Assembly (NCBI GenBank): GCA_947487205.1
Contig: CANKVU010000003.1
Coordinates: 62,001-126,000 of the forward strand
From: an uncultured Paracoccaceae bacterium
GTDB lineage: Bacteria > Pseudomonadota > Alphaproteobacteria > Rhodobacterales > Rhodobacteraceae
Reading direction: 5' to 3'
Length of the DNA stretch: 64,000 nt
The translations under genes were made by a program, and so were the position numbers. This document shows, in pieces, positions 21,672 through 29,102 of the stretch. The notes beneath the pieces are model-generated. The model was not told the DNA's origin, searched no databases, and saw only the letters and a list, made by a program, of their open reading frames with translations. Position 1 is the stretch's first letter. Each line of letters opens with the position of its first letter.

Positions 21672-22213
21672 CCGGGCAGCCCGGCTTCGCGCCCGTCGCC
21701 GACGCCGAGTGGCCGGGGGAGATCGCCGATCTGCGCGCGGGCTTCGCCGGGCGGCTGAACGTCTATCGCGCCATGGCCCACCATCCGGCGCTGCTGCGCG
21801 CCTGGGCGGATCTGCGCGACCATGTGGTGAACCGCACGACGCTGGGCCCGGAACGGAGCGAGGTGGTGATCCTGCGCGCCGGCCACCGGCTGGGCGCGGC
21901 GTATGAATGGGCCCACCACGTGGTGCGGGGCCGGGCGGCGGGGCTGACGGATGCGCGCATCGCCACCCTGTCCGGCCCGCTGGCGGGCATGACGGACGGG
22001 GACGCGCTGCTGGCCGGGGCGGTGGACGATCTGGTCGGGGAGGCGGCCCTGTCGCCCGACCGGCTGGCGGCGCTGGTCGCGGCGCATGGCCGGGAGGGGG
22101 TGCTGGACCTGATGGCGACGGTGGGGATGTATTCCACGCTGGCCTTCGTGGTGAAGAGTTTCGGCACGCCGGTGGACGACGACGTGGCCGCGGCGCCGCC
22201 GCTTGCCCGCTAG
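21668..22213 (+). CDS. Carboxymuconolactone decarboxylase-like (AhpD-fold) protein
   Basis: 181 residues. RSEVVILRAGHRLGAAYEW followed by AHHVVRGRAAGL is the typical CMD-family core, but the CxxC of AhpD peroxidase partners is missing, so redox catalysis of the AhpD type is unlikely. Function unknown. Start overlaps the regulator stop by 4 bp; co-transcription with the Mur-like gene is likely. Its TAG overlaps the stop of pncB on the other strand. Confidence 0.75.
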   Translation: MTGQPGFAPVADAEWPGEIADLRAGFAGRLNVYRAMAHHPALLRAWADLRDHVVNRTTLGPERSEVVILRAGHRLGAAYEWAHHVVRGRAAGLTDARIATLSGPLAGMTDGDALLAGAVDDLVGEAALSPDRLAALVAAHGREGVLDLMATVGMYSTLAFVVKSFGTPVDDDVAAAPPLAR

Positions 22214-23502
22214 ACGAGGACCGCGCGGCGCTGCTGCTCGCCCACCTCGAAGACGCGGCGGTAGCGGGCGACCTCGTCCGCCGGACCTGTCGCCTTCTCG
22301 GGGTTGTCGGAGAGCTTGACCGTGGGATGGCCGTTCGCGGCCTTCGCCTTGCAGACGAGGCTGAAGGGCGCCAGCGCGTCGTCCCTCGTCAGGCCGCGGA
22401 AATCGTTCGTGAGCAGCGTCCCCCAGCCGAAGCTGGTCCGCACGCGGCCCTCGAACCGGGCGTGCAGGTCCTCGATCACGTCCACGTCGAGCCCGTCCGA
22501 GAAGATCACGAGCTTGTCCCGCGGGTCCTCGCCGCGCTCCCGCCACCAGCGGATCGCCGTCTCGGCCCCCGCCACGGGATCGCCGGAATCGACGCGGATG
22601 CCGGTCCAGCGGGCCAGCCAGTCGGGGGCGTTCTTGAGGAACCCGGCCGTGCCGTAGGTATCGGGCAGGATGATCCGCAGGTTGCCGTCATGCTCCTCGT
22701 GCCAGTCGGAGAGCACGTCGTAGGGGGCGCGGCGCAGATCCGCGTCGCTCTCGGCCAGGGCGGCATAGACCATCGCCAGCTCGTGGGCATTGGTGCCGAT
22801 CGCCTCGAGGTCGCGGTTCTTGGCGATGAGGCAGTTCGAGGTGCCGGTGAAGGCCGATCCCAGCCCCTCCTGCATGGCCCGGACGCACCAATCCTGCCAC
22901 AGGAAGGAATGCCGCCGCCGGGTGCCAAAATCGGCGATCCTGAGCTCGTCGATGCCCTTGAGCCGCTCCACCTTCTCCCAGAGCTTGGTCATGGCGCGGG
23001 CATAGAGGACCTGCAGCTCGAACCGGCCGAGATCGTGCAGGACCGCCCGGCCGCGCAATTCCATCAGCACCGCGAGGGCCGGGATCTCCCACAGCATGAC
23101 CTCGGGCCAGGGGCCCTCGAAGGTCAGCTCGTACTGGTCGCCGACGCGTTCCAGGTGGTAGGGCGGCAGGCGCAGCCCCTCGAACCAGTCCATGAAGCCC
23201 GGCGTGAACATCTGCCGCTTGCCGTAGAAGGTGTTGCCGCGCATCCAGGTGCTCTCGCCCCGGCTGAGCGACAGCGAGCGGATGTGGTCGAGCTGCTCGC
23301 GCAGCTCCCCCTCGTCGATCAGGCGGGCGAGCGGCACCGATTGCGAGCGGTTGATCAGGCTGAAGGTGACGCGGGTCTGGGGGTGGCGGCGCAGCACCGT
23401 CTGGCACATCAGGAGCTTGTAGAAATCGGTGTCGATCAGGGACCGCACGATCGGGTCGATCTTCCACTTGTGGTTCCAGACGCGGGCGGCGATGTCGACC
23501 AT
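22210..23502 (-). CDS. pncB: Nicotinate phosphoribosyltransferase PncB
   Basis: Nicotinate to nicotinate mononucleotide in NAD salvage. 430 residues. Conserved: LIDTDFYKLLMCQTVLRRHP at the start, FGTRRRHSFLWQDW, GTSNCLIAK, the catalytic-region NAHE in GTNAHELAM, and RVDSGDPV and IFSDGLDVD. Its product is also the co-substrate of CobT. Stands alone between arfB and the convergent CMD-like gene. Confidence 0.96.
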   Translation of the reverse strand: MVDIAARVWNHKWKIDPIVRSLIDTDFYKLLMCQTVLRRHPQTRVTFSLINRSQSVPLARLIDEGELREQLDHIRSLSLSRGESTWMRGNTFYGKRQMFTPGFMDWFEGLRLPPYHLERVGDQYELTFEGPWPEVMLWEIPALAVLMELRGRAVLHDLGRFELQVLYARAMTKLWEKVERLKGIDELRIADFGTRRRHSFLWQDWCVRAMQEGLGSAFTGTSNCLIAKNRDLEAIGTNAHELAMVYAALAESDADLRRAPYDVLSDWHEEHDGNLRIILPDTYGTAGFLKNAPDWLARWTGIRVDSGDPVAGAETAIRWWRERGEDPRDKLVIFSDGLDVDVIEDLHARFEGRVRTSFGWGTLLTNDFRGLTRDDALAPFSLVCKAKAANGHPTVKLSDNPEKATGPADEVARYRRVFEVGEQQRRAVLV

Positions 23503-23577
23503 GTGTGTCTCCGGTGGACCTGGACGGTTCGTCGCTTATGCACGCCGCTCCCCGCCGAGGGCAAGGCGGGCCGGGCC

Positions 23578-24003
23578 TCAGCCCTCGGGATCGACGCGGC
23601 CGCGCATGGCCTTCACGTCGCCGCGCGTCTTCTTGGCCTTCAGGCGGCGCTTCTTGGAGCCGAGCGTGGGACGGGTGGGGATGCGCTTCTTGGGCGCCTC
23701 GGTGGCCTTGCGGACCAGGTCGGCCAGCCGCGCGCGCGCGATCTCGCGGTTGCGGGGCTGGTGGCGCGTCTCGGCCACCTGGATGACGATCGCCCCCTCC
23801 TTGGTCCAGCGGCGCCCGGCGAGCCGGCGCAGGCGCGACTTGACCGCGGCGGGCAGGTTGGGCGAGCGCGCTGCCTCGAACCTGAGCTCCACCGCGGTGG
23901 CGACCTTGTTCACGTTCTGCCCGCCGGGGCCGCCCGACTGGACGAAATGCTCCGTCATCTCCCAGTCCTCGAGAACGATCCGGTCGGTGATCCGCAGGCT
24001 CAT
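23578..24003 (-). CDS. arfB: Alternative ribosome-rescue hydrolase ArfB (YaeJ)
   Basis: 141 residues. The catalytic SGGPGGQNVNKVATAVELRF (GGQ near residue 26) and a long basic C-terminal tail (KKRIPTRPTLGSKKRRLKAKK) that enters the empty mRNA channel show a peptidyl-tRNA hydrolase working on stalled ribosomes without a stop codon. ATG overlaps the stop of the CaCA gene by 4 bp, so both are probably read from the transcript led by the 25.2-kb leader. Confidence 0.93.
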   Translation of the reverse strand: MSLRITDRIVLEDWEMTEHFVQSGGPGGQNVNKVATAVELRFEAARSPNLPAAVKSRLRRLAGRRWTKEGAIVIQVAETRHQPRNREIARARLADLVRKATEAPKKRIPTRPTLGSKKRRLKAKKTRGDVKAMRGRVDPEG

Positions 24004-25034
24004 GTGAACAGGAGGATCACCGACAGGGCATAGAGCGCAAGCACCGAAACGCTTTCGAAGCCGACGCCGGCGGGGCCGTCGCGGTCGCGCTTGAGCAGGC
24101 CCAGCAGGAGCAGGCCGGTCATCAGGATGGCGATGAGCGCGGTACCCATGTGGTCGGGGGTGATGGCGGCGTAGATCGAGCCGTCATAGGCCACGTCGGC
24201 GGCGGCGAGGAACATCACGTCGAAGGCGTTGCCGCCCAGGATGTTGCCGATCGCGAGGCTGACGGCGCCGGCGCGCACCGCCGCGACGGCGGTCACCAGT
24301 TCGGGCAGCGAGGTGGCGACGCCGCTGAAGAGCGTGCCGATCGGCCCGGCGCCGATATCGGTCTTGTCGACGAGGCCGATGGATGCCTGCGCGATGGCCA
24401 GGCCGGCCGCCGCGGTGATCGCCGCCAGCCCGGCGAATTGCAGCCAGAGCGTGGTCAGCCGCCCCTCGACATGCTCGACATCCGAGATCTCCTCTTCGGT
24501 CTCGCTGGTCTCGACCGGGTTCCACATCGGGCTCTGCTCGATCTGCCACAGGAGGCGCAGGCCGAAGATGTAGGCGAGCGGGATGGCGAGCGAGGCGGGA
24601 TGGATCCAGCCCAGCGTCACGCCCGGCGCCGTCGCCGCCAGCAGCGGGATCGACAGCGTTACGACCATCAGCACGCCCTGGGCCAGGCCGGTGACGCTGG
24701 CCGCCGCGTGTTCGAGGTTCGCGCGGCGGTAGAACAGGTCGGCGATGGCGATGAAGGCTGTCTGCGCGGTCAGCGATCCGAAGGCGTTGCCGACGGCCAG
24801 CTCGGGCTGGTTCTGGAACGCAGTCGAGACGGAGGTGATCGCGCCCGGCATCGACGTCGTCAGCCCGACGAAGAGCGCCCCCGCGATGACCTCTCCCAGG
24901 CCGGTCCGGTCGGCCAGCTCGTCGGCCACGCTGCTCAGCCGCACGCCGGCGACGCCGATCACCAGCGCGGTGACGAGGAAGGTGACCACCAGCCCCCAGA
25001 GCGGGTAGGCGGAAATCTGCAGGAAGTCGGGCAC
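24000..25034 (-). CDS. CaCA-family cation exchanger, divergent
   Basis: 344 residues, about ten membrane segments in two halves separated by an acidic loop (ETEEEISDVEH). The alpha-2 repeat GVATSLPELVTAV with AIGNILGGNAFD is close to the CaCA consensus; the alpha-1 repeat reads GLTTSMPGAITSV and AVGNAFGSLTAQ, where the usual Glu is Gly and the usual Asn is Leu. Calcium/proton or sodium exchange is therefore uncertain. Start is the GTG at 25034, with AGGAGG 5 nt upstream. Overlaps arfB by 4 bp. A long leader with small ORF and terminator precedes it. Confidence 0.85.
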   Translation of the reverse strand: MPDFLQISAYPLWGLVVTFLVTALVIGVAGVRLSSVADELADRTGLGEVIAGALFVGLTTSMPGAITSVSTAFQNQPELAVGNAFGSLTAQTAFIAIADLFYRRANLEHAAASVTGLAQGVLMVVTLSIPLLAATAPGVTLGWIHPASLAIPLAYIFGLRLLWQIEQSPMWNPVETSETEEEISDVEHVEGRLTTLWLQFAGLAAITAAAGLAIAQASIGLVDKTDIGAGPIGTLFSGVATSLPELVTAVAAVRAGAVSLAIGNILGGNAFDVMFLAAADVAYDGSIYAAITPDHMGTALIAILMTGLLLLGLLKRDRDGPAGVGFESVSVLALYALSVILLFT

Positions 25035-25073
25035 GTCGCCTCCTCGGGGACGGGTCGCCCCCCGGAAGGGGCG

Positions 25074-25106
25074 AAGAAAAGGGACCACCGGAGTTCCGGT
25101 GGCCCC
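25074..25106 (-). terminator. Intrinsic terminator in the leader of the CaCA gene
   Basis: Minus strand: 11-bp stem GGGGCCACCGG / CCGGTGGTCCC with AACT loop, followed at once by TTTTCTT. It lies 40 bp upstream of the CaCA start and downstream of the 18-codon leader ORF, so it is placed as an attenuator rather than a gene-end signal. Confidence 0.8.
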
Positions 25107-25161
25107 TCGAATGTTTCGGAGATGGGCCCGGTTAGAGCGGGCGCCCAATCATGGAAGTCCG

Positions 25162-25183
25162 GTCCGAGGGACTGCCCTCAGAC
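25162..25183 (-). promoter_or_regulatory. Hairpin covering the leader-ORF stop codon
   Basis: Minus strand: GTCTGAGGG-CAGT-CCCTCGGAC, a 9-bp stem with one G-U pair and a 4-nt loop. The TGA stop of the leader ORF (25180-25178) is inside the 5' arm. A ribosome at the stop would keep the hairpin open. Confidence 0.6.
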
Positions 25184-25234
25184 GCGGGCCCCCGCGACTG
25201 TTCCGACCTCATACTCCACCATCATTCTCGACAC
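25178..25234 (-). CDS. 18-residue leader peptide with 16S-complementary ribosome-binding region
   Basis: Encodes VSRMMVEYEVGTVAGARV from a GTG start. The 17 bases up to and including the first start-codon base (25250-25234) read GAAAGGAGGTGGTCCAG and match the complement of the alphaproteobacterial 16S rRNA 3' end at all positions but one, and that one can form G-U. AGGAGG lies 7 nt before GTG. The ORF is followed by a hairpin on its stop codon and an intrinsic terminator. A TTGACA (25299-25294) upstream may be its -35, though no good -10 is seen. I do not recognise this peptide as a described leader. Confidence 0.6.
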   Translation of the reverse strand: MSRMMVEYEVGTVAGARV

Positions 25235-25305
25235 TGGACCACCTCCTTTCGCTTGATTTCCGATACCGGGGAAAGTGGCACGGATCGGGTCCCTGTCAAA
25301 CGAAA

Positions 25306-25926
25306 TCATGCCGTCCCGGGGCTGAGGCGATCGGTGATGAGGCGGAACGGCGCCAGGGCGATCAGCGCCAGGGCGAGCTTGACCATCCAGTCGGCCAGGG
25401 CGAGCGACACCCAGAGCGGCACGTCGGGGCCGAGGCCGACGAGCGGCAGCACCTCGTTCGCCCAGGACACGTCCTCGGCGGGGTGGATGACGGTGAGCGC
25501 GGAGGAGAAGGCGATGGAGAAGAACAGCGCGGTGTCGAGCGCCGAGCCCGCCACCGAGGAGGCGAGCGGCGCCGACCACCAGCGCCCGCCCCGGATGCGG
25601 TCGAAGACCGCGATATCCACCAGCTGGGCCACGAGGAACGCGCTGCCCGAGGCGATCGCCACCCGCAGGGTCACCACGGGGCCGAACTCTCCCTGGATCT
25701 GGGTGCCGACCAGCGAGCACAGGACGCCGGTCGCGAACCCGGCCAGCACCACCCGGCGCGCCATGGCGGCGCCGTGGAGACGGTTCATCACGTCGGTGAC
25801 GAGGAAGGCGAGCGGATAGGTGATCGCCCCCCAGGTCAGCCAGGGCCCGAGCCGGTGCTGCACGAGGATGTTGGAGGCCACGACGATCGCGGCCATGGCG
25901 AGGATGCCGAAAAGCAGGCGGGGCAT
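25306..25926 (-). CDS. yhhQ: Queuosine precursor transporter (YhhQ/DUF165)
   Basis: 206 residues, about six membrane segments. Family marks: ITYPLAFLVTDVMNRLHG near the N-terminus, GSAFLVAQLVDIAVFDRIRG in the middle and LADWMVKLALALIALAPFRL near the end. Imports 7-cyano-7-deazaguanine-type precursors for tRNA queuosine. No preQ1 riboswitch was recognised in its 88-bp upstream gap, which holds only a small GGCGCG/CGCGCC dyad. Confidence 0.88.
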   Translation of the reverse strand: MPRLLFGILAMAAIVVASNILVQHRLGPWLTWGAITYPLAFLVTDVMNRLHGAAMARRVVLAGFATGVLCSLVGTQIQGEFGPVVTLRVAIASGSAFLVAQLVDIAVFDRIRGGRWWSAPLASSVAGSALDTALFFSIAFSSALTVIHPAEDVSWANEVLPLVGLGPDVPLWVSLALADWMVKLALALIALAPFRLITDRLSPGTA

Positions 25927-26014
25927 GGGATCGGTTCCGTTTTGACAAGGTGGTCGGAAACTTGGGCCCGGGGGCCAGGGGCGCGATAGCGCCGCGCCGG
26001 CGGCGTGGCAAGCC

Positions 26015-26881
26015 TCAATCGGGAACCGCGTATTCGACGAATTCGGTGCGCTGGAAGAAGGCGTAATTGTCGTCCGAGACGAGCGTGAGGCGCAGCCGGC
26101 CCTGGGCGTCGCGCCAGGCCGAGATCCCTTCGAGGTTGTCGTGGTCCCGCGGCGCGGTCTCGATCAGGGTCTCGATCGCGCCGATGCGGCCCTCGTCGAG
26201 GGTGATGCGGCGTACGCGGGACTGGAACCCGATCCGGAGCGCCAGCCGCCGCTCCAGCAGGTAGAGCCGCCCGCGATCGTCGAAGTCGAGTCCCACGGCG
26301 CGATAGCCGATGAGCGGCCAGGCGCCGCCGCCCGGGATGTCGCCCGCCTTGCTCCACTGGCCGTCGAGGCCGCGCCAGAGGGCGTAGTTTCCCGACCAGT
26401 CCGGCGCCTCGGCGAGGGTCCAGAGGGCGCCGTCCCCGGAGATCGCGAGCCCTTCGAGGCCCGCGTTCCCGCGCAGGTCGCCGAAATCCTGCGGCAGCGG
26501 CAGGCTGGTCGGGAAATGCTGGCCGGGCGTCCAGCGCAGGAGCCGGGGGACGATCTCCAGCGAGATGTTGATCGTGCCGTCGGCGGCGATGGCGAGCCCC
26601 TCGGTGTCGGCGCCGATCTGGTCGACCTCCCGCACGCCCTCGTAGGAGACGCCGATGATCCGCCCGTCGGCGGACCGCTCGAACGTCAGCTCCACCAGCC
26701 CGGCGCGGTCGCCGAGGGCCAGCGCGTGGCCCCCGTCCGACGCCATTTCGAGTCCCGAGAGGCCGCCGAGCCATTCCCGCGGCGGCGCCCAGGTATGGGC
26801 GCCCAGCATCTCGGCGGCCGTGGCCGGGAGGGCCAGCGCCCAGAGCGCGGCCAGGACGGGCGCGGCGGCGCGGCGGATCAG
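26015..26881 (-). CDS. Secreted esterase-like-activity-of-phytase family protein
   Basis: 288 residues. Beta-propeller-like protein of the PF13449 type: GLSGLEMASDGGHALALGDR, DTEGLAIAADGTINIS, NAGLEGLAISGDGALWTL and DNLEGISAWRDAQGRLRL are repeated strand blocks. The first residues form a signal peptide (IRRAAAPVLAALWALALP, ending ATAA). No ATG, GTG or TTG precedes the signal peptide closely; the CTG at 26881 overlaps the mepA TGA (CTGA) and is the best start. The first downstream ATG would remove the signal. Enzymatic activity is not established for the family. Confidence 0.78.
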   Translation of the reverse strand: MIRRAAAPVLAALWALALPATAAEMLGAHTWAPPREWLGGLSGLEMASDGGHALALGDRAGLVELTFERSADGRIIGVSYEGVREVDQIGADTEGLAIAADGTINISLEIVPRLLRWTPGQHFPTSLPLPQDFGDLRGNAGLEGLAISGDGALWTLAEAPDWSGNYALWRGLDGQWSKAGDIPGGGAWPLIGYRAVGLDFDDRGRLYLLERRLALRIGFQSRVRRITLDEGRIGAIETLIETAPRDHDNLEGISAWRDAQGRLRLTLVSDDNYAFFQRTEFVEYAVPD

Positions 26882-27774
26882 CGCGCCAGCACGGCCTGGC
26901 AGGCCTGGGGCAGATCGGCCACGCGAAGGTCGCGCTTGGGCGTCGGCGCGGGGGCGTTCGGGTCGGGCGGCGGCGGATTCAGGATGTTGCCGACCCAGCG
27001 CTGCGCCGCCGCACAGCCGTCGCCGGGCGGCGGCGGGTCCTGGTTCACGCAGCCCGGCGCATCCGCCGGGCAGGAGAGGCGGACGTGCATGTGATAGTGA
27101 TGTCCCCACCAGGGCCTGACCTTTCTCAGCCACGACCGGTCGCCGGTCGCGTCGGCGCACATCTGCACCTTGGCGCCGGGAAAGATAAAGATGCGCGCGG
27201 TGCGGGGATCGCTGGCAGCGGCCTTCACGAGTTCGTGTTGATAGGGCGACCAGAGGGAATTGACGTAGGCGCCGTTCGCGCGCTGCATCGACACGGCCGA
27301 GATGCGTTCCCGCGCGCCCCGGTCGAGACCGAGCGTGGCCGGCATCAGCCAGATGTCGGCGTCGAGGCCGCTCTGGTGGCTGGCATGACCCGTCAGCATG
27401 GGCCCGCCGGAGGGCTGGCTCATGTCGCCGACATAGAGGCCGTTCGATTGCGGCAGCGCGGCGGCGCGGCGCGACAGGTCCTGCACGAAGTCGATGGTGG
27501 TGGGATGCGCCCAGTTGCGGTTGCGGCTGAGACGCATCGCCTGCCAGGTCGGGCCGGTTTCGGCCAGTTGTGCCCCGCCGGCGAGGCAGCCCCGAGAATA
27601 TTCGCCGTAGGGCGCGGCGGGAAGGTCCGCAGGCCGTCCCTTGGTGCCGAAGACCTGCTTGGCCACCGCCCCGCGGGACACCGCGACGCCGTCGAGGCTG
27701 GGCGCGGGGACCTCGCGCTCGCCACAGGCTGAAAGGGCGAGGAGCGCGATGGCGGCGAGGCGGAGGAGAGTCAT
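26878..27774 (-). CDS. mepA: Penicillin-insensitive murein endopeptidase MepA
   Basis: 298 residues; cleaves D-Ala-meso-DAP cross-bridges. Zinc-site motifs are TGHASHQSGLDADIWLMP and WWGHHYHMHVRLSCP. The N-terminus LLALSAC is a lipobox, so it is probably a lipoprotein. The C-terminal 50 residues are proline-rich (NPPPPDPNAPAPTPKRD). The ATG at 27774 overlaps the end of the UMF1 gene by 4 bp. Confidence 0.93.
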   Translation of the reverse strand: MTLLRLAAIALLALSACGEREVPAPSLDGVAVSRGAVAKQVFGTKGRPADLPAAPYGEYSRGCLAGGAQLAETGPTWQAMRLSRNRNWAHPTTIDFVQDLSRRAAALPQSNGLYVGDMSQPSGGPMLTGHASHQSGLDADIWLMPATLGLDRGARERISAVSMQRANGAYVNSLWSPYQHELVKAAASDPRTARIFIFPGAKVQMCADATGDRSWLRKVRPWWGHHYHMHVRLSCPADAPGCVNQDPPPPGDGCAAAQRWVGNILNPPPPDPNAPAPTPKRDLRVADLPQACQAVLAR

Positions 27775-29102
27775 GGGGCGCGGTCTCCCTGTGGGTTGAC
27801 CCAACGTAGCAGCAACAACCCTGACGCGAAAAGCACGATCAGCGGTGCCACCCCGAGGTGTTGCGATCCGGTCAGGGACGTCGTCGCGGCGACCGAGAGC
27901 GGCGCGATGAACGCCGTCGCCTTTCCCGACAGCGCATAGAGGCCGAACCCCTCGGTCATGCGGCCCGGATCGGCCTGGCGGATCATCATGGTGCGGCTGG
28001 CCGCCTGAAGCGCGCCGCCGGCGCCGCCGATGGTCGCGCCGATGCCGAGGAAGATCATGTCGGGCAGTTGCGAGCGCAGGCCCATGGGAATCCCGGCGAT
28101 GGCCTCGCGCGACACGGTCATGGACAGCGCGACGGCCAGGATCAGCAGGGTGACGGAGACCACGATCACCGGCATCGGCCCGTATTTCTGGTCGGCCCGG
28201 CCGCCGAGCCAGGCGAAAAGCGCCCCGGACATCACCGCGATGATGCCGAAGGTGCCGGTTTCGACCACCGACCAGTCGAGCACGCCGGCCGCGAAGATGG
28301 CGCCCAGCGCGTAGGCCCCGGCCAGTCCGTCGCGATAGAGCATCGAGGCGGCAAGGAAGGCCAGCCGGCTGGGCGTCTCGGGCAGCGCCCTGATCGAGCG
28401 GCCGAGGCCCGCCAGCGCCGCCCCGATCCCGCCGGGGGTGGGGCGGGACCGGTCGCCGACCCAGAGGAAGAACGGCACCATGAAGACGACGTACCAGATC
28501 GCGGTGAAGGGGCCGACGAGGCGCGTGCCCTCGCGCGTGTCTGGATCGAGGCCGAAGAGCGGCGGGATGCCGAGCAGGGTGGTGCCCGTCGCCGCGTCCT
28601 CGGCGAAGAACAGGAGCATGGCGACCAGGGAGACGAGCCCGCCCAGATAGCCGAAGGCCCAGCCCGCGCCCGAGAGGCGGCCCAGCGTCTCGGGCGGGGC
28701 GAGGTCGGGAAGCATCGCGTTGGTGAAGATCGTGGCGAATTCCATCCCGATCAGGCCGATGCCGAAGAGGATCATGGTGCGGGTCAGGTCGAAATCCTGC
28801 GGCGCCGCGAACCACAATCCCGCCGATCCCGCCACGTAGAGGACCGAGAAGCCCCCGATCCAGATCCGCCGCCGGCCGGTGCGGTCGGCCACCGCGCCGA
28901 GGACGGGGGCCAGGAGCGCCATCACCACCCCCGCGGCCCCGACGCCGTAGCCCCAGGCGGCCTGCGCCGCGGTGCCGTCGCCCAGGACCTGCGCCACGTA
29001 GGGCCCGAAGACGAAGGTGATCAGGAGCGTGTTGTAGGGCTGGCTGGCCCAGTCGAAGAAGAACCAGCCCCAGATGCGCCGCCTCGCGGGAATGTCGTTC
29101 AT
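27771..29102 (-). CDS. UMF1-family major facilitator transporter
   Basis: 443 residues, twelve predicted membrane segments. The start IWGWFFFDWASQPYNTLLIT is the hallmark of the Atg22/UMF1 branch (PF11700), and VADRTGRRR and GGRADQKYGP are MFS loops 2-3 and 8-9. Substrate not predictable. ATG at 29102 has GAGGGG upstream. Overlaps mepA by 4 bp; UMF1, mepA and the phytase-esterase-like gene form one operon. Confidence 0.88.
   Translation of the reverse strand: MNDIPARRRIWGWFFFDWASQPYNTLLITFVFGPYVAQVLGDGTAAQAAWGYGVGAAGVVMALLAPVLGAVADRTGRRRIWIGGFSVLYVAGSAGLWFAAPQDFDLTRTMILFGIGLIGMEFATIFTNAMLPDLAPPETLGRLSGAGWAFGYLGGLVSLVAMLLFFAEDAATGTTLLGIPPLFGLDPDTREGTRLVGPFTAIWYVVFMVPFFLWVGDRSRPTPGGIGAALAGLGRSIRALPETPSRLAFLAASMLYRDGLAGAYALGAIFAAGVLDWSVVETGTFGIIAVMSGALFAWLGGRADQKYGPMPVIVVSVTLLILAVALSMTVSREAIAGIPMGLRSQLPDMIFLGIGATIGGAGGALQAASRTMMIRQADPGRMTEGFGLYALSGKATAFIAPLSVAATTSLTGSQHLGVAPLIVLFASGLLLLRWVNPQGDRAP

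What the first reader, a model, noticed from the sequence alone, without database searches (positions are those of the whole stretch)
25034..25299. Leader of the CaCA-arfB operon: mini-ORF with 17-nt complement to 16S rRNA, stop-codon hairpin and terminator
Seen: on the minus strand, bases 25250-25234 (GAAAGGAGGTGGTCCAG) complement the 3' end of alphaproteobacterial 16S rRNA over 17 positions, with one G-U, far beyond a normal Shine-Dalgarno. It ends on the first base of a GTG-started 18-codon ORF. The ORF stop codon is inside a 9-bp hairpin (25162-25183). Next comes an 11-bp terminator with TTTTCTT (25074-25106), then the CaCA gene and, overlapping it, arfB. Inference: very tight 30S binding or slow release on this leader could decide between termination and read-through. 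The operon would then respond to ribosome availability, fitting with ArfB, which rescues stalled ribosomes. I know of no described system with this layout.
Basis: partly seen in the sequence, partly recalled or inferred. Interest (0 to 1): 0.82.

Follow-up and report, generated by a model that had tools for sequence, protein, structure and literature searches.

The report
rreR small mRNA, Rfam CC2171 kin
The stretch looks like a small stand-alone RNA gene, widespread in this bacterial family and in more distant relatives, that carries an unusually long ribosome-binding site in front of an 18-codon reading frame; it appears to be the already described rreR small mRNA rather than a new switch controlling its neighbour genes.

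Summary
The 16S complement recurs in 112 of 149 sampled family genomes, and a model of the RNA finds it in 25 of the other 37. The RNA matches Rfam RF01867 (CC2171, a Caulobacter sRNA) below its cut-off. By recall it is rreR, the 18-aa small mRNA with an extended Shine-Dalgarno of the Rhodobacter/Roseobacter lineage (Hahn et al. 2017; reference seen, text not held). It has its own promoter-like site, conserved in the family. Two points I did not find in the held papers: Rfam's closing helix reappears here with other, covarying bases, and in this family the RNA's own anti-SD masks the SD. The leader reading is weak: loci with other peptide types have arfB downstream in 0 of 49, and family arfB upstreams show no SD excess but an excess of -10-like boxes (13 of 65). 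Yet arfB follows in 72 of 90 family loci and no promoter is evident between terminator and CaCA here, so read-through is not excluded.

The parts
25294..25299 (-). -35 box TTGACA of the RNA's own putative promoter
   Evidence: TTGACA-like box, 16-18 nt, NANNNT in 73 of 85 distinct family loci vs 11.9 +/- 3.1 in shuffles; not listed by the scan
25272..25277 (-). -10-like box CACTTT, 21 nt before the SD (family versions mostly CANNCT or CANNTT)
25234..25250 (-). extended Shine-Dalgarno, 17 nt complementary to the 16S 3' end with one G-U
   Evidence: core GAAAGGAGGTG intact in 24 of the 25 RNAs recovered from pattern-negative genomes, which lack the full 17 nt
25178..25234 (-). 18-codon ORF VSRMMVEYEVGTVAGARV plus TGA (rreR-type)
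   Evidence: 18 codons in 78 of 85 distinct family loci; of the 75 analysed TAG 32, TGA 32, TAA 11
25118..25124 (-). internal anti-SD element CAUCUCC that pairs with GGAGGUG 25246-25240 (P1)
25215..25238 (-). P2 hairpin holding the start codon in its stem
   Evidence: near-invariant, weak covariation
25223..25227 (-). 5' strand of helix H1 (GAAUG), codons 3-4
25109..25113 (-). 3' strand of helix H1 (CAUUC), just before the terminator
25146..25200 (-). P3 hairpin with the stop codon in the apical stem (tip 25183-25162)
25126..25142 (-). P4 small hairpin
25074..25108 (-). intrinsic terminator and T-run
25306..25926 (-). VUT/YhhQ-type queuosine precursor transporter gene upstream
   Evidence: Pfam Vut_1 97 bits, TIGR00697 82.3 bits, both over cut-off; relative upstream in 88 of 90 family loci
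24000..25034 (-). CaCA-type sodium/calcium antiporter gene, not found downstream in other family loci except the same genus
   Evidence: Pfam Na_Ca_ex 87.6 bits over cut-off
23578..24003 (-). arfB, usual gene after the RNA in relatives
   Evidence: NCBIfam PRK09256 178.9 bits, cut-off 100

Best explanation
It is a small independent gene, the rreR-type member of the Rfam CC2171 / rre family: an RNA of about 185-190 nt (start inferred) with its own sigma-70-like promoter and intrinsic terminator. It carries an 18-codon ORF behind an SD that, across the family, pairs with 11 to 17 nt of the 16S 3' end. In members of this family the SD and start codon are predicted to be folded away: the SD pairs with an internal copy of the anti-SD (P1) and the GTG sits in a hairpin (P2). 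A second helix (H1), which crosses P1, ties codons 3-4 to the bases before the terminator. Translation would therefore need a 30S subunit to displace the RNA's own anti-SD, so ribosome loading, and with it the RNA's stability or activity, would depend on free 30S. Shown here by sequence: anatomy, conservation, covariation of H1 and P3, promoter-like site. Inferred: 30S-dependent opening. Recalled from the rreB paper: 30S co-sedimentation and translation-dependent stability. The last six residues look unconstrained, so the act of translation and the stop position probably matter more than the product. Effects on CaCA-arfB are incidental or minor.
For: Rfam match E 6.5e-6; of 16 family loci scanned 13 match at E < 0.001 and 3 weakly (0.012-0.2), 25.6-47.5 bits; 4 of 4 class loci scanned score 81-90 bits, over the cut-off. 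Family: 112 of 149 plus 25 of the 37 others at E <= 0.01. Class: 66 of 289 at E <= 0.001. Promoter-like site 73 of 85 vs 11.9 +/- 3.1. ORF length kept with three different stop codons. SD core unpaired 0.028 vs 0.258 with the rest shuffled, lower in 71 of 73. H1: 323 vs 289.6 +/- 6.9 in 73 family loci; 359 vs 264.8 +/- 8.3 in 63 loci with other peptide types. Few shared neighbours across the class.
Against: The window and family members score below Rfam's cut-off of 75 bits (39.9 here). SD masking is not class-wide: 0.318 vs 0.268 in 75 other loci, i.e. slightly more open than shuffles. The 17-nt complement is not kept in the 25 RNAs. The scan lists neither the promoter nor the terminator. Conserved yhhQ-rreR-arfB synteny hints at a link to arfB. 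No expression data were available. Permutation tests do not correct for shared descent. The rreR identity rests on recall.
Confidence: 0.76

Rival explanations
1. Ribosome-sensing attenuator of CaCA-arfB: loading of ribosomes on the mini-ORF frees the internal anti-SD and shifts the balance between terminator and read-through.
For: arfB is downstream in 72 of 90 family loci; of 58 distinct loci measured, 31 have under 50 nt between terminator and arfB start. In the window 39 nt separate the T-run from the CaCA GTG and no promoter-like site was listed there (the same scan also missed the RNA's own promoter). A leader of similar logic exists: the S. meliloti duf1127-1 uORF (PMC12218461, passages read).
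Against: arfB downstream in 0 of 49 loci with other peptide types and only 8 of 18 named family-type loci; in 16 of 85 distinct family loci no arfB was found in the 1.5-2.6 kb held downstream; -10-like boxes before some arfB starts (13 of 65); same-genus CaCA lies about 340 nt away; the terminator is very stable (-26.6 kcal/mol) and folds apart from P1-P4; no conserved antiterminator was shown.
Confidence: 0.16
2. Trans-acting RNA: when a ribosome opens P1 the exposed CACCUCC element pairs with SDs of other mRNAs.
For: A 16S-3'-end-like element is present in most family loci analysed.
Against: The masking is confined to this family; no target was sought or shown.
Confidence: 0.06
3. Chance, or merely the 3' UTR of yhhQ.
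For: A yhhQ relative is upstream in 88 of 90 family loci.
Against: Own promoter-like site, occurrence across the class with yhhQ upstream in 0 of 56 loci with other peptide types, covarying H1, conserved ORF.
Confidence: 0.02

Closest known systems
rreB / rreR small mRNAs (Hahn et al. 2017, RNA Biol 14:1353; text not held, content recalled, reference seen)
   Same: 17-nt SD complementary to 16S, GTG start, tiny ORF (recalled: 14 aa in Bradyrhizobium, 18 aa in the Rhodobacter/Roseobacter lineage). The 4 Bradyrhizobium loci among the 80 named ones encode 14-mers ending KRCHLAGIAR; family loci mostly 18-mers.
   Different: Masking by an internal anti-SD, the promoter and the arfB/yhhQ context are described here from sequence; whether that paper mentions them could not be checked.
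Rfam RF01867, CC2171 (Caulobacter sRNA)
   Same: 5' GAAAGGAGGUGAUCCAGUGUC, position of H1 (already paired in Rfam's structure line), terminator (alignment).
   Different: Family members score 25.6-47.5 bits, below the cut-off; Rfam types it as sRNA gene; H1 here has other bases; SD masking is extra.
S. meliloti duf1127-1 uORF leader (PMC12218461; abstract and passages)
   Same: RBS folded with early uORF codons; proposed sensor of ribosome availability; an sRNA containing the uORF.
   Different: Experimentally shown attenuation of one gene, with a proposed rut-like element; homology was not tested here.
rpsU extended SD of Bacteroidota (PMC9976891; abstract and passages)
   Same: Exceptionally long SD used for ribosome-state-dependent translation.
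   Different: Precedes a ribosomal protein gene, in organisms whose ribosomes occlude the anti-SD.

Membership tests
rreR small mRNA (definition recalled) | at least 16-nt complement to the 16S 3' end before a small ORF | tested here: met
   17 nt with one G-U
rreR small mRNA (definition recalled) | 18-codon ORF conserved in the Rhodobacter/Roseobacter lineage | tested here: met
   18 codons in 78 of 85 distinct loci, common pattern MSRxxLERGVGT; named Rhodobacteraceae records carry the same type
rreR small mRNA (definition recalled) | association with 30S subunits, translation-dependent RNA stability | not testable with these tools
   needs gradients and start-codon mutants
Rfam RF01867 CC2171 | covariance-model score at or over the gathering score of 75 | tested here: not met
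   39.9 bits
Rfam RF01867 CC2171 | shared architecture: extended SD, GUGUC start, H1, terminator | tested here: met
   window H1 GAAUG:CAUUC
ribosome-dependent attenuator of the downstream operon | mutually exclusive terminator and antiterminator depending on leader translation | tested here: inconclusive
   no antiterminator shown; terminator separate from P1-P4 in the folds seen
ribosome-dependent attenuator of the downstream operon | conserved linkage to the regulated gene | tested here: inconclusive
   arfB 72 of 90 and 8 of 18 named family-type loci, 0 of 49 others; CaCA only in the same genus
ribosome-dependent attenuator of the downstream operon | downstream gene depends on the leader promoter | not testable with these tools
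   needs TSS data; 13 of 65 arfB upstreams have a -10-like box

The most novel reading that the evidence does not exclude
The rre/CC2171 RNA is a two-state RNA, H1 against SD:anti-SD pairing, that reads free 30S subunits by letting the real 16S 3' end compete with a built-in copy of it; in Rhodobacteraceae it came to sit in front of arfB so that ribosome rescue is tuned to the state of the ribosome pool through terminator read-through or promoter interference.
Probability: 0.15. Interest if true: 0.78.

Novelty: already known. Interest (0 to 1): 0.42.

Why it matters
It ties together three things: an Rfam sRNA family (CC2171), the published rreB/rreR small mRNAs, and an unannotated locus beside arfB. 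The covarying helix and the self-made anti-SD give direct mutational tests of how a very long SD is used for regulation. If the arfB link is functional it would be an RNA sensor of ribosome supply next to a ribosome-rescue gene.

Tried and rejected
Considered and dropped: another Rfam family (the search of 22000-28500 gave only CC2171 and a hit at E 2.8); yhhQ 3' UTR; chance; a conserved CaCA leader (CaCA downstream only in the same genus among 90 loci).

Neighbour comparison of 30 class loci showed shared genes only between near relatives, plus a DUF188-like gene (name recalled) near L110 and L114 and one gene at different positions in L113 and L124.

A first alignment of 84 loci with RNAalifold gave almost no structure; I replaced it by anchored columns and single-sequence base-pair probabilities.

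Limits and rows dropped. The anti-SD element was located with a CTCC pattern, so the P1 column counts are biased; of 85 distinct loci 7 were left out for another ORF length, 3 for no CTCC match, 2 more for no recognised terminator. One search placed some terminators at a later hairpin; one search replaces it (58 measured; 11 with arfB but no recognised terminator and 16 without arfB not measured). One search contained 3 family-type loci by mistake (66 loci, 373 vs 274 +/- 8.7); one search repeats it without them: of 110 loci, 4 too short, 21 family-type, 13 duplicates, 9 without terminator, 63 kept. The 'other' set used the same imperfect filter. P2 covariation is weak (-8.25 vs -8.10 +/- 0.06 kcal/mol, with permutations reaching -8.29). 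pN/pS is 0.44 for codons 2-12, confounded by RNA structure, and 1.08 for codons 13-18. I expected SD masking to be class-wide and it was not. Shuffles keep base composition only. Peptide type stands in for taxonomy and is imperfect (L186, a record named Rhodobacteraceae, fell among the others).

Papers: Hahn et al. 2017 could not be read. Of 9 papers holding the string CC2171 two are relevant: a table in PMC5596092 and a table in PMC11701678. Passages of PMC5082802, PMC10117765 and PMC13009471 gave nothing on this gene, and the terms sought in PMC4842269 did not occur.

Full report
What is there. On the minus strand the window holds, in order, a VUT/YhhQ-type gene (25926-25306; Vut_1 and TIGR00697 over cut-off), a TTGACA-16-CACTTT promoter-like site (25299-25272), a 17-nt complement to the 16S 3' end (25250-25234), an 18-codon GTG ORF ending in TGA (25234-25178), a stop-codon hairpin (25183-25162), a terminator (25108-25074), then CaCA from 25034 (Na_Ca_ex) and arfB from 24003 (PRK09256 ArfB model, 178.9 bits). 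The 16S 3' end was found in the assembly by pattern, so the one G-U is real; at 0 mismatches the site is the only other place. The simple scan listed neither the promoter nor the terminator.

Identity. cmscan gave RF01867, CC2171, a Caulobacter sRNA, at 39.9 bits (cut-off 75), E 6.5e-6. A strict pattern hit 11 of 289 class genomes including our own; by eye all 10 others show the same build. Four of these were scanned and are over the cut-off; seven of the ten are over it, two are not (46.4 and 69.8 bits) and one was not searched. With the Rfam model 66 of 289 class genomes at least 90% complete match at E <= 0.001, 10 over the cut-off; of 14 named control genomes only Caulobacter vibrioides rang. 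Within the family 112 of 149 genomes carry the pattern with at most one mismatch, and a model built from 40 sequences found the RNA in 25 of the remaining 37 at E <= 0.01, the weakest at 0.0066. In those 25 the 11-nt core GAAAGGAGGTG is intact in 24, but the rest of the 17 nt is relaxed, so the full complement is common but not essential. It shows lineage-specific peptides behind the same SD: 14-mers ending KRCHLAGIAR in 4 Bradyrhizobium records, MSHGS-type 18-mers in sphingomonads, MSRxxLERGVGT-type 18-mers in Rhodobacteraceae. This fits what I recall of Hahn et al. [quoted passage not shown] That text was not held; its reference was seen in PMC7298713.

The ORF. Of 85 distinct family loci 78 have exactly 18 codons. 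In the 75 analysed the stop is TAG in 32, TGA in 32, TAA in 11, and codon 2 is Ser in 71, as TCG, TCT or TCA. pN/pS over 618 pairs is 0.44 for codons 2-12 and 1.08 for codons 13-18. Reading frame and stop position are kept, the end of the peptide is not.

Structure. Folding 73 RNAs one by one gives P1 (SD GGAGGUG with CACCUCC, mean probability 0.78-0.93) and P2 around the start codon (0.68-0.86); P3 with the stop codon and P4 are seen in the folds. The SD core is unpaired with probability 0.028 against 0.258 when the rest is dinucleotide-shuffled, lower in 71 of 73. In 75 other loci the value is 0.318 against 0.268, lower in only 27, so masking belongs to this family. P3 arms fit each other better than swapped arms (-23.5 vs -18.1 +/- 0.34 kcal/mol); P2 hardly. 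Helix H1 links codons 3-4 here (codons 2-6 elsewhere) with the bases before the terminator. In Caulobacter-type RNAs it is the CAUUGUC:GACAAUG pairing already in Rfam's structure line. What I add is that it reappears with other bases: GAAAG:CUUUC, GAGAA:UUCUC and GAAUG:CAUUC (here) in the family, CAUGGU:ACCAUG or AUGAGAUU:AAUCUCAU elsewhere. Against permuted partners: 323 vs 289.6 +/- 6.9, none of 2000 as high (73 family loci); 359 vs 264.8 +/- 8.3, none of 5000, with runs of 6 or more in 36 of 63 against 8.9 expected. H1 crosses P1, so the two form a pseudoknot or alternate; which is unknown.

Is it the leader of CaCA-arfB? In favour: a yhhQ relative upstream in 88 of 90 family loci and arfB downstream in 72 of 90 (85 are distinct). 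31 of 58 measured gaps between terminator and arfB start are under 50 nt. In the window 39 nt separate T-run and CaCA and no promoter was listed there (a scan that also missed the RNA's own promoter). Against: own promoter-like site (73 of 85 vs 11.9 +/- 3.1; with a -35 of at least 5/6, 56 vs 1.4 +/- 1.3). arfB upstreams have no SD excess (8 of 65 vs 5.2 +/- 2.1) but a TANNNT at -16 to -4 in 13 of 65 vs 3.9 +/- 1.9, with T-12 48% and A-11 52%, as expected if some arfB mRNAs are leaderless. Among named loci, arfB is within 900 nt in 8 of 18 family-type and 0 of 49 other loci, yhhQ upstream in 18 of 20 and 0 of 56. In the same-genus genome CaCA starts about 340 nt behind the terminator.

Mechanism. 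The most likely reading is a self-inhibited small mRNA whose translation needs 30S to displace a built-in anti-SD. Anatomy and covariation are shown; 30S-dependent opening is inferred; 30S binding of rreB is recalled. The closest worked-out analogue is the S. meliloti duf1127-1 uORF leader, whose authors propose sensing of ribosome availability (PMC12218461, abstract and passages). Extended SDs serving ribosome-state control are known from rpsU of Bacteroidota (PMC9976891, abstract and passages).

Verdict. The gene is, by recall, the known rreR, and Rfam's CC2171 looks like the same family although this locus is below its threshold. Searches of the held library showed no paper that links CC2171, rreR and arfB; most subscription papers are not in that library. 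On rechecking, the leaderless-arfB evidence proved thinner than I had first written (13 of 65) and blind to the RNA's own promoter, so I moved 0.02 from the best reading to the leader rival.

Noticed in passing
family loci, e.g. L066, L072, L098 upstream of arfB: Some arfB genes in the family may be leaderless: a TANNNT box a few bases before the ATG in 13 of 65 upstreams and no SD excess. Odd for a ribosome-rescue gene and testable.
   Followed up: partly
L168 (MAG labelled Gemmatimonadota, CP070812.1): An exact rre-type extended SD with a 21-codon ORF in a record labelled Gemmatimonadota; transfer, mislabelled bin or chance not resolved.
   Followed up: no
L195 (Hyphomonadaceae MAG): An arfB-like gene lies 175-585 nt upstream of the rre element on the opposite strand, the only one of 58 loci with other peptide types that has arfB in the stretch held.
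   Followed up: no
L259 300-480: Repeat-like insertion with inverted copies of GGGATATTTTTGGAAA between the terminator and CaCA in the same-genus genome.
   Followed up: no
Rfam RF01867: At its cut-off the CC2171 model takes 10 of 289 class genomes, against 66 at E <= 0.001, and it types as sRNA an RNA that carries a conserved ORF.
   Followed up: partly
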